A stretch of 64,000 nt of DNA. It comes from Puccinia triticina (lineage: Eukaryota > Basidiomycota > Pucciniomycetes > Pucciniales > Pucciniaceae). Made by a program: the position numbers and the translations under genes. The stretch's first letter is position 1. Each line of letters opens with the position of its first letter. Below, piece after piece: positions 27,372-30,674 of the stretch. The stretch covers positions 682,001 to 746,000 of the forward strand of contig NC_070572.1 of assembly GCF_026914185.1 (NCBI RefSeq), written 5' to 3'. The notes under the pieces are model-generated. The model had not been told where the DNA came from. It did not search any database and saw nothing but the letters and a program-made list of their open reading frames with translations.

Positions 27372-27811
27372 TAAAAATAGGGTCTTGGAAAAGGGTCAAT
27401 CTACATGCACGCCAAGTTTTGACTACTTGCACGCCATAAATTTGGAGTACACAAGTCAGTACGCCAGGATTTGAGGCGTGCTCAAAGATGTACGCCAAGA
27501 AGAAGGGAGTGCCAAGGGATGAACGCCATATTATTGGGCGTACAGGAATACATACGCCAATCATTATCAATTTTGAGGCGTGAGGACATTGGCACACCAA
27601 ATTTATTGGCGTGCAAGAGTAGACACGCCAAGGAGTCCCCATTTCTTCCACTGGAGTGCACGGCTGCTCACACCAAACTTTACAGTTCTTGGTGTCCACT
27701 GGCTTGCACACCAAATTTGCATATTGTTGGCATGCACTGCATGTGGATTGCACACCAATCCAACTACGGGCTCTGTCAATCCAACTAGGGGCTTATAAAT
27801 TAGTTTCTTTT

Positions 27812-28223
27812 AAGCTCCAGCAGTAGCAAGGGCTGAGATGACCTTTCCAAGTGTGGTGAGAGATTTGTTGATCTGAGCACCCTCCTTGAGTCTCACACCG
27901 GTAGCACCAGTACTGTTAGCCCGCTCCAAGCCAGCAAGATTGACCAAACTGATTCTTGAGACTTTCTCGCCCTCCATACCGGTCGTCGCATCTTTTTGTC
28001 ACTGAGACAGTAAGAGTGTAAAGACCAAATGAGAACGGGATGACGTTTTGTTCATGTTTGTCGCCGCAACCGTTTGGGCTTTGTTGCCCTCATCCATTAA
28101 CGTCTCAACATCGCTGTAAGATTGGACTGCCAGCTTTGATAGATCTTCGACGTAGGGACCTAAGCTGGGTTGCTCTTGGACTCTAAGGTTGCCCTTGTTC
28201 TTTGGGTTCAGCAGATCACGGAC
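27812..28223 (-). pseudogene. Captured kinesin-3 motor domain fragment
   Basis: Read on the minus strand, about 137 codons match the C-terminal half of a kinesin motor domain of the Unc104/KIF1A type: VRDLLNPKNKGNLRV, GPYVEDLSKLAV, the switch I segment NMNKTSSRSH, the switch II region ISLVNLAGLE, then GVRLKEGAQINKSLTTLGKVISALA. Canonical switch II is DLAGSE, so the catalytic Asp and Ser are lost. An in-frame TGA follows LLLSQ. The P-loop, neck and tail are absent. It cannot be a motor. The intact parent gene must lie elsewhere in the genome. Confidence 0.9.
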
Positions 28224-28247
28224 ACACTTGTTTTAGATCTAGAAATT

Positions 28248-28480
28248 TTGATTGCCAATGAGTGTCAGTGCAAGTTTAGCATGTTTTATGTGAGCTTGAG
28301 AATCCCGGAACCAGTTTGACCATCTATGGAAGATTTCCAACGGATAATCGAGTGCATCAGTGTTGGTTGGTGGATTGGTGCTGGTGATGTTGGCCGGTGG
28401 GGTGGTTTCGTGCGCCATGGGGTAGTTGGTGGAATGGCGCGGAGAGCCGGAGAGATCAGGGACTTGGCCGCTGGGCTGAT
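28248..28480 (-). pseudogene. Possible second captured coding fragment
   Basis: Upstream of the kinesin piece on the same strand a frame reads through a proline/threonine-rich part into DALDYPLEIFHRWSNW and stops after LALTLIGNQNF. The Trp-rich segment looks like real protein, but I do not recognise it. It lies inside the Pack-MULE-like element. Confidence 0.35.
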
Positions 28481-30674
28481 GACTTGGGTTTGGATGCTCC
28501 AGAGCTACATATATGGCGTGTCAAGGGGTGTACTCCTGTTAATTCATGCCAAGGTGCTATCAGGGTGGGCGTGCGGTGCGTGCACGCCAGTCCCAGTGGA
28601 GCACAGTGGATATGTACGCCGCTTCTGGAGCTCCTTTTGGAGTGAGGGAGCTGTTACGCCATCTTTTATGGCGTAACTAGGCGTGCACGCCTAAAAAGTT
28701 GGCGTACCAAGGCTTTGGACACCTTTTTGGCGTGCACGTAGTCAAAAATTGGCGTGCATTTAGATTGACCCCTTGGAAAAACGACTCCCAACTTTTGGGA
28801 AAACAACTCCCATATGTCGGCGCAACTGTTTTTCAACCAGCGCTCGACGTCGACCTAGACCCTTTTTTTGGGTACGGGTTTTTTTGGAGTCGTCAACCCA
28901 AAATAAAAAAAAATTTGGAGTCGTTGTGCTAATTTTTCGTATTATTTTTTATTATTTTTGATATGTATAACTTTTTTGTTCCACGTACTAGAGACATACA
29001 AATTTGAGAGCACAAAGATTTATGCATAAATTGTACTCCCTGAATTTCTTAGCAATAGTGTGTCATCAGAACATGAGATATAAGGGGTGCGTGGTGGGCA
29101 TAGTAGGAAAATGACCGCCAGCCATATAAGTTTTTTGTTACACACCCAAAAAGTCCAAAACTTTCAGTAATCTTTCCATAATGCATATAGTTTGTGCTAT
29201 CAAATTATTAGCAATAGTTTTCCATTGTAGAATGACATAGAAGGGGTGTGCGTAGGGCTTAGTAGGAAAATGACCGCCAACCATATAAATTTTTTGTTAC
29301 ACACCCAAACAGTCCAAAACTTTTAGGAATCTTTCCATGATGCATATATTTTGTGCTATAAAATTATTAGCAATAATTTTCCATTGTACAATGATGTATA
29401 AGGGGTGCGCGGAGGGCTTAGTAGGAAAATGACCACCAACCTCATATCTTTTTTGTTACAGACCCAGACAGTCTAAAAATTTCAGGAAACTTTCAATGTA
29501 GCATATCAAGCTTTCTATGAAATTCTTAGCCATGGGGTGTAATCAAAATGAGAGATATAAGGTGTGTGCGGATAAAGCCCGCCGTGCACACCCCATATCT
29601 CCTATTTTTATCACATCAAGTTGCTAAGGATCTCATATCACAAATAATATGCTACATGAAAGATTTCCTGAAATTCTCGGACTGTTTGGGTCTGTAACAA
29701 AAAAGTTATAAGGCTGGCAGCCATTTTCCTACTAAGCCCTCCGCGCACCCCTTATACATCATTGTACAATGGAAAAATATTGCTAATAATTTTATAGCAC
29801 AAAATATATGCATCATGGAAAGATTTCTGAAAGTTTTGGACTTTTTGGGTGTGTAAAAAAAAGGTATATGGTTGGGGGTCATTTTCCTACTAAGCCCTCC
29901 GCGCACCCCTTATATGTCATTCTACAATGGAAAACTATTGCTAATAATTTGATAGAACAAACTATATGCATTATGGAAAGATTCCTGAAAGTTTTGGACT
30001 TTTTGTGTGTGTACAAAAAAACTTATATGGCTGGCGGTCATTTCCCTACTAAGCCCAACACGCACCCCTTATATCTCATGTTCTGATGGCACACTATTGC
30101 TAAGAAATTCAGGGGGTACAATTTATGCATAAATCTTTGTGCTCTCAAATTTGTATGTCTCTAGTACGTGGAACAAAAAAGTTATACATATCAAAAATAA
30201 TAAAAAATAATACGAAAAATTAGCACAACGACTCCAAATTTTTTTTTATTTTGGGTTGACGACTCCAAAAAAACCCGTACCCAAAAAAAGGGTCTAGGTC
30301 GACGTCGAGCGCTGGTTGAAAAACAGTTGCGCCGACATATGGGAGTTGTTTTCCCAAAAGTTGGGAGTCGTTTTTCCAAGGGGTCAATCTAAATGCACGC
30401 CAATTTTTGACTACGTGCACGCCAAAAAGGTGTCCAAAGCCTTGGTACGCCAACTTTTTAGGCGTGCACGCCTAGTTACGCCATAAAAGATGGCGTAACA
30501 GCTCCCTCACTCCAAAAGGAGCTCCAGAAGCGGCGTACATATCCACTGTGCTCCACTGGGACTGGCGTGCACGCACCGCACGCCCACCCTGATAGCACCT
30601 TGGCATGAATTAACAGGAGTACACCCCTTGACACGCCATATATGTAGCTCTGGAGCATCCAAACCCAAGTCATC
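28478..30674. repeat. 2.2-kb near-perfect palindrome
   Basis: 28,478 onward and 30,674 backward are reverse complements. From 28,478 to about 29,025 the two arms appear identical; further in they differ by occasional substitutions. The centre is near 29,575. The arms contain about 500 bp of the Pack-MULE-like right end and the outer transposon terminal region, then three tandem units of about 160 bp per arm, marked by AGGGGTGCG...AGTAGGAAAATGACC. Confidence 0.9.
29077..30072. repeat. 160-bp satellite units in mirror orientation
   Basis: Units begin with AGGGGTGCG-like sequence at about 29,080, 29,240 and 29,399 on the plus strand, and recur as complements at about 29,740-30,072. Each contains TAGTAGGAAAATGACCGCC and TTACACACCCAAA. 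Confidence 0.8.

What the first reader, a model, noticed from the sequence alone, without database searches (positions are those of the whole stretch)
27384..28780. Pack-MULE-like transposon with a kinesin motor fragment in a fungus
A perfect 9-bp target duplication, 44-bp inverted repeats with three mismatches, arrays of GGCGTGC/GCACGCC near both ends and no transposase define a non-autonomous Mutator-like element. Its cargo is an antisense piece of a kinesin-3 motor domain, a conserved host gene. Gene-capturing MULEs are well known in plants; in fungi, particularly rusts, they are little described as far as I know. If the family is widespread it may be shuffling host exons or making antisense RNA against a motor gene.
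Basis: partly seen in the sequence, partly recalled or inferred. Interest (0 to 1): 0.88.

Follow-up and report, generated by a model that had tools for sequence, protein, structure and literature searches.

The report
Rust-fungus transposon carrying kinesin gene fragment
A short jumping gene in a rust fungus has picked up a broken piece of a motor-protein gene and carried it to new places in the genome, a behaviour well known from plants but little documented in fungi; the piece itself looks like decaying junk.

Summary
Confirmed: window 27393-28771 (1379 bp) is a non-autonomous Mutator-like element with perfect 9-bp target duplications, 44-bp inverted ends with three mismatches and a kinesin-3 fragment as cargo. 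The genome (122.8 Mb, 18 contigs; Puccinia by protein matches, species not established) holds its relatives: 71 matches to the end sequence, 30 of them paired elements, and a 4.5-kb copy with MULE transposase sequence. The donor gene lies 2.83 Mb away on the same contig. Three loci carry the chimera and share both capture junctions, so there was one capture, of DNA, since intron sequence is kept. Two of them have different perfect duplications, so the chimera has transposed; two unoccupied target sites were found. It is a genuine Pack-MULE. The fragment has stop codons and an even spread of changes over codon positions, many of them at CpG. A new member of a known kind; no rust case was seen in the papers searched.

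The parts
27384..27392 (.). left 9-bp target site duplication CTTGGAAAA
27393..27436 (+). left terminal inverted repeat, 44 bp, GGGTCAATCTA...
27393..27818 (+). left MULE part, 95% identical over 426 bp to the left end of the 4.5-kb C6 relative
27817..28363 (-). captured kinesin-3 fragment (547 bp; 95.3% over 488 bp and 98.3% over 59 bp to the donor gene C15:3541761-3542469, with 162 bp of the donor missing)
27817..28238 (-). part of the kinesin exon that starts IYNERVRDLL in the donor
28239..28304 (-). last 66 bp of donor intron 2, retained (introns read from splice signals and the kinesin reading, not from RNA)
28305..28323 (-). first 19 bp of the donor P-loop exon; the rest of this exon and the start of intron 2 are missing
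28324..28363 (-). last 40 bp of donor intron 1, retained
28359..28771 (+). right MULE part, 91% identical to the right end of the 4.5-kb C6 relative
28728..28771 (-). right terminal inverted repeat, 44 bp, 3 mismatches to the left one
28772..28780 (.). right 9-bp target site duplication CTTGGAAAA
31192..31200 (-). unoccupied target site: single CTTGGAAAA in the other arm of the transposon into which the MULE inserted

Best explanation
A Pack-MULE. A full-length Mutator-like transposon of this Puccinia genome lost its central part and, at the same place, gained about 709 bp of genomic DNA from the kinesin-3 gene at C15:3541761-3542469. The likely route is interrupted gap repair or template switching at short microhomology; that step is inferred. 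The chimera, with both MULE ends, was then moved by transposase supplied in trans (inferred). It now exists at three loci. A 162-bp deletion inside the kinesin part is shared by the window copy and the C14 copy and absent from the third. The window copy landed 4 bp inside the end of another transposon. The fragment is not coding and many of its changes are CpG transitions, as expected of methylated, silenced repeats (inferred).
For: Perfect 9-bp TSDs at the window copy (CTTGGAAAA) and the C14 copy (TTAGGAGAG), both TIRs present. Unoccupied site with a single CTTGGAAAA at 31192-31200, and at both ends of another copy of the same host transposon on C11. 71 matches to the end sequence against 0 for the reversed control, 30 pairs; 23 of the 28 pairs read have perfect 9-bp TSDs, two of these being one segmental duplication. 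The C6 copy matches 426 bp on the left and 413 bp on the right of the window element and has pieces of a MULE transposase between (PF10551, E 3.6e-19); the C1 copy has a 410-aa open frame with PF10551, E 2.9e-24. The donor gene's large exon is open over 623 codons with kinesin domains. Matches run unbroken through both junctions in the three kinesin copies; the left junction is spanned at exactly three loci (all 8 candidates scored). Intron sequence is kept: parts of two introns in window and C14, all of intron 2 in the third copy. Overlap at the junctions: 2 bp on the left, 5 bp with one mismatch on the right.
Against: No transposition was observed. The C6 copy's transposase is spread over more than one frame, and the C1 copy has no matching right end in the pattern search, so a working transposase was not shown. 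C6's own flanks give only a low-complexity TSD with one mismatch. Five of the 28 pairs read lack a perfect 9-bp TSD (C6, C8:1328146 with 8 bp, C7:1629603 with one mismatch, C4:1730993 and C4:5872458 with none). The third kinesin copy is split by an LTR element and its far end was not found intact, so its TSD could not be read. The gap-repair step rests on short junction overlaps only.
Confidence: 0.96

Rival explanations
1. Assembly join or segmental duplication: the kinesin piece beside repeat sequence is an artefact or a plain duplicated block.
For: The window does contain an inverted duplication next door that copied 304 bp of the element's right end with its TSD, and one pair of relatives on C13 is a segmental duplication (L024, L025).
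Against: The window and C14 copies have different perfect TSDs, and unoccupied sites exist.
Confidence: 0.02
2. RNA-mediated capture: a spliced kinesin transcript or retrocopy was taken up, as reported for histone H3 in a fungal hAT element.
For: Such a capture is suggested for Pseudocercospora fijiensis (PMC6710886, passages seen).
Against: 40 bp of intron 1 and 66 bp of intron 2 are in the window copy; the C15:645673-657018 copy keeps intron 2 and both its exon borders.
Confidence: 0.01
3. The captured piece has a function: its transcripts make small or antisense RNA that tunes the kinesin-3 gene.
For: Three copies with 93-98% identity to the gene, in stretches of 59 to 640 bases, could supply matching small RNA if transcribed. 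No expression data were available.
Against: The fragment lies in the transposase frames' own direction, so the element's promoter side would give sense RNA. Changes fall evenly over codon positions (7, 5, 7 in the window copy), three stops interrupt the match, and 14 of 24 changes are CpG transitions.
Confidence: 0.05
4. A prolific gene-capturing MULE family that shuffles many host exons in this rust.
For: The mechanism is present at least once; 30 pairs and 11 single ends carry the end sequence.
Against: Of 28 paired elements read only 2, plus 1 interrupted copy, hold a recognised host-gene piece, and these come from one event. Extra stretches tested in five other copies match sequence repeated elsewhere in the genome (L024 and L025 counted as one), and a sixth is a 173-bp tandem array. 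Only this family was examined.
Confidence: 0.1

Closest known systems
Pack-MULEs of plants (rice; Jiang et al. 2004, recalled and seen only as a citation)
   Same: MULE ends, 9-bp TSD, no transposase, fragment of a host gene, copied several times
   Different: Fungal host; only one capture event found in this family; no evidence of expression or selection
Histone H3 transduplication by hAT transposons in Pyrenophora tritici-repentis and Pseudocercospora fijiensis (PMC3538342, PMC6710886; passages seen, including abstract lines)
   Same: Fungal DNA transposon carrying a conserved host gene sequence and multiplying it
   Different: There hAT, with 8-bp TSD, spliced sequence and hundreds of copies in P. 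fijiensis; here MULE, 9-bp TSD, introns kept, three copies
MULEs beside expanded gene families in Rhizophagus irregularis (PMC8647823, section 7 read)
   Same: Fungal MULEs proposed to multiply host genes
   Different: There the evidence is closeness to genes and clustering; here the gene piece lies between the ends of defined elements with TSDs and a known donor
Puccinia MULE lineage (Puccinia graminis named in PMC6446971, passages seen; Puccinia protein matches)
   Same: The 410-aa transposase piece matches P. striiformis proteins with MULE domains at 61-63% over 84-97% of its length, and P. triticina, P. graminis and P. coronata proteins over shorter stretches
   Different: No captured gene piece is described in the passages seen

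Membership tests
Mutator-like elements (MULE) | long terminal inverted repeats | tested here: met
   44 bp with 3 mismatches, weaker to about 90 bp
Mutator-like elements (MULE) | 8-11 bp, usually 9-bp target duplication (recalled) | tested here: met
   perfect 9 bp here; 23 of 28 paired relatives read have perfect 9 bp
Mutator-like elements (MULE) | MULE-type transposase in longer relatives with the same ends | tested here: met
   PF10551 in the C6 and C1 copies; the C13:302504-306872 copy is 72% identical to C6 over a 3004-base alignment
Pack-MULE | no transposase in the element | tested here: met
   ORF list of the element; 3.6 kb of C6 interior absent
Pack-MULE | fragment of an identifiable host gene between the ends | tested here: met
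   kinesin-3 gene at C15:3541406 onward, 95-98% identical
Pack-MULE | capture at DNA level, introns may be kept | tested here: met
   intron 1 and 2 sequence kept
Pack-MULE | chimera has itself transposed | tested here: met
   window and C14 copies in different sites with different TSDs
Pack-MULE | transcribed or translated cargo (reported for plant ones) | not testable with these tools
   no RNA data
hAT transduplication as in Dothideomycetes | 8-bp TSD and hAT transposase | tested here: not met
   9-bp TSD, MULE transposase in relatives

The most novel reading that the evidence does not exclude
This is the first documented gene-capturing MULE of a basidiomycete with donor gene, transposase-bearing relative, unoccupied sites and capture junctions all in hand, and it shows that DNA-level capture of exons by MULEs is not confined to plants; other MULE families in rust genomes may carry further captured genes.
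Probability: 0.45. Interest if true: 0.5.

Novelty: new member of a known kind. Interest (0 to 1): 0.4.

Why it matters
The passages seen on Pack-MULEs speak of plants. A well-resolved fungal case gives a clean test of how MULEs take up host DNA outside plants, and warns that gene predictions in rust genomes can count such fragments as extra kinesin genes. Its biological effect is probably nil.

Tried and rejected
Other captured genes in the family. Stretches not shared with other copies were followed up where I could. Those in C9:4290157, C8:4133565, the unpaired C13:1086925 copy, the C13:3089629/3107258 duplicate pair and part of that in C9:3624731 all match sequence repeated elsewhere in the genome (42, 41, 93, 44 and 59 matches listed, only 40 candidates scored in each); for C8:4133565 the other places are 86% identical or less. 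I read these as nested repeats. The stretch in C4:5872458 is largely a 173-bp tandem array. The 310-bp insert of the C14 copy has TG...CA ends and a 5-bp repeat by eye, so probably a solo LTR; the genome search meant for it took the wrong stretch, the kinesin/left-end junction, which showed that three loci span that junction. The insert itself, the extra sequence in the C15:645673-657018 copy and the unshared stretches of C13:302504 and C1 were not searched. Two of the 30 paired elements (C10:5079239, C13:3185705) and five of the 11 single ends were not read.

The second subfamily first seemed to have mixed cores (plus strand only); one search showed that the odd ones are the same element in reverse orientation.

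Pfam on the extra ORF next to the transposase gave no match for C6 and only a sub-threshold one for C13; its OTU-like look is a recalled motif, and four Puccinia matches are named OTU domain-containing. The species was not identified: the best named kinesin match is Puccinia striiformis at 88%, an unnamed metagenome protein reaches 95% (only the best candidates were scored).

Paper searches. Passages were seen; the terms occurred only in reference lists; section 7 of PMC8647823 was read. Nothing seen describes a Pack-MULE in a rust, but only open-licence PMC papers are searched and of most hits I saw only the listing, so absence is weak.

Full report
What is there. The element runs from 27393 to 28771 (1379 bp), with the 9-bp duplication CTTGGAAAA at 27384-27392 and 28772-28780. 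Its ends agree over 44 bp with three mismatches, and the GGCGTGC/GCACGCC arrays are far above chance: 10 copies against a mean of 0.17 and at most 3 in 1000 Markov sequences.

Insertion is shown by unoccupied sites as well as by the repeats. The element sits 4 bp inside the end of another transposon (27380-31204, itself with 8-bp repeats TAAAAATA on both sides). The far arm of that transposon, at 31192-31200, has the same sequence with a single CTTGGAAAA, and so do both ends of another copy of it on contig C11. That host family is abundant: 124 matches listed, with only 40 of 573 candidates scored.

Relatives. A search for the end sequence with up to 3 mismatches gives 36 forward and 35 reverse matches, and none for the reversed control. 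They form 30 pairs and 11 single ends; one single is a copy of the window element's own right end. I read 28 of the 30 pairs; 23 of 28 have perfect 9-bp TSDs. Twenty-three of the 28 belong to a second subfamily with similar ends and a tandem-repeat core, mostly 0.8-1.7 kb (one is 154 bp, two are enlarged to 4.8 and 6.7 kb by other sequence). The kinesin-bearing subfamily includes a 4498-bp copy at C6:5486570-5491067, which matches 426 bp on the left and 413 bp on the right of the window element and between them has transposase sequence (MULE domain PF10551, E 3.6e-19). A copy on C1 without a recognised right end has a 410-aa open frame with the same domain (E 2.9e-24). C3:8462574-8463839 is an internal-deletion derivative. 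A further 4369-bp relative at C13:302504-306872, 72% identical to C6 over a 3004-base alignment, has a perfect TSD and its own transposase-like frames. The 410-aa piece has 44 database matches; 22 rows name an organism, 21 of them Puccinia and one a plant FAR1-related protein at 28%.

The cargo. Kinesin sequence occupies 27817-28363 on the minus strand. The donor is a gene at C15:3541406 onward, 2.83 Mb away, whose large exon is open over 623 codons and carries Kinesin, Kinesin_assoc and FHA domains. The fragment matches donor bases 3541982-3542469 (95.3%) and 3541761-3541819 (98.3%), with 162 bp between them missing. From the donor sequence (splice signals and the kinesin reading), the window copy keeps the last 40 bp of one intron and the last 66 bp of the next. 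A third copy, at C15:645673-657018, has the kinesin stretch without the 162-bp deletion and keeps the second intron; it is split by an element with 1253-bp direct repeats 99.7% identical. So DNA was captured, not a spliced message.

One capture, several moves. The junction between kinesin and left MULE end is spanned at three loci (all 8 candidates scored), and matches also run through the right junction in all three. The window and C14 copies share the 162-bp deletion but stand in different sites with different perfect TSDs (CTTGGAAAA, TTAGGAGAG), so the chimera transposed after it formed. All three copies also share several differences from the donor (alignment). Junction overlaps are 2 bp on the left and 5 bp with one mismatch on the right, compatible with template switching during gap repair; this step is inferred.

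Function. Differences from the donor fall evenly on codon positions (window 7, 5, 7; C14 4, 2, 4; third copy 9, 7, 8), and CpG transitions make up 14 of 24, 9 of 19 and 24 of 39; in C14 that is just under half. The kinesin match contains three stops in the window copy, and most of the P-loop exon is lost. A short frame of 59 residues (counted by eye) runs from a methionine in the MULE end into the kinesin part but out of the kinesin frame. The fragment has the same direction as the transposase frames, so the element's own promoter side would give sense RNA. I find no support for an antisense role, and none for wide exon shuffling by this family: the extra stretches that I could test in other copies are repeats. 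Not every extra stretch was tested; the gaps are listed under what was tried.

Placing it. The Pack-MULE features that could be tested are met. Fungal gene capture by DNA transposons has been reported for histone H3 in hAT elements (PMC3538342, PMC6710886; passages) and gene multiplication by MULEs has been proposed in Rhizophagus (PMC8647823). In the papers searched I saw no Pack-MULE described in a rust. The finding is sound, neat and modest: a new member of a known kind in an under-described host group.

Noticed in passing
window 27380-31204: The Pack-MULE lies inside a foldback-like transposon with 8-bp repeats TAAAAATA at 27372-27379 and 31205-31212 and long inverted arms; the family is abundant in the genome.
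   Followed up: partly
window 28477-30675: A 2.2-kb inverted repeat: the outer arms agree in 549 of 550 aligned columns and include 304 bp of the MULE right end with its TSD (30372-30675), while the last 150 columns towards the centre are only 68-82% alike. It looks like a later inverted duplication or conversion.
   Followed up: partly
G000:C13:302504-306872 (L017, L064): A second long MULE relative, perfect TSD TAAGGATAA, transposase-like frames and an extra frame like that beside the C6 transposase.
   Followed up: partly
L018-L028, L049-L057, L060-L063: Short copies with the same ends and a core of roughly 31/62-bp tandem repeats; copy length varies with repeat number and nested repeats.
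   Followed up: partly
L010/L011, G000:C15:646633-655958: An element with 1253-bp direct repeats, 99.7% identical, split the third kinesin-bearing MULE copy.
   Followed up: no
G000:C4:5872458-5879149 (L066): A copy of the second subfamily whose centre is filled by a long 173-bp tandem array.
   Followed up: no
window 32367-32681 (-): Piece of a zinc-binding dehydrogenase gene (PF00107, E 1.1e-11) about 1.2 kb beyond the nested transposons.
   Followed up: no
G000:C13:3089629-3090848 and C13:3107258-3108477 (L024, L025): Two copies with the same TSD TTCCTAATA about 17.6 kb apart, so a segmental duplication rather than two insertions.
   Followed up: partly
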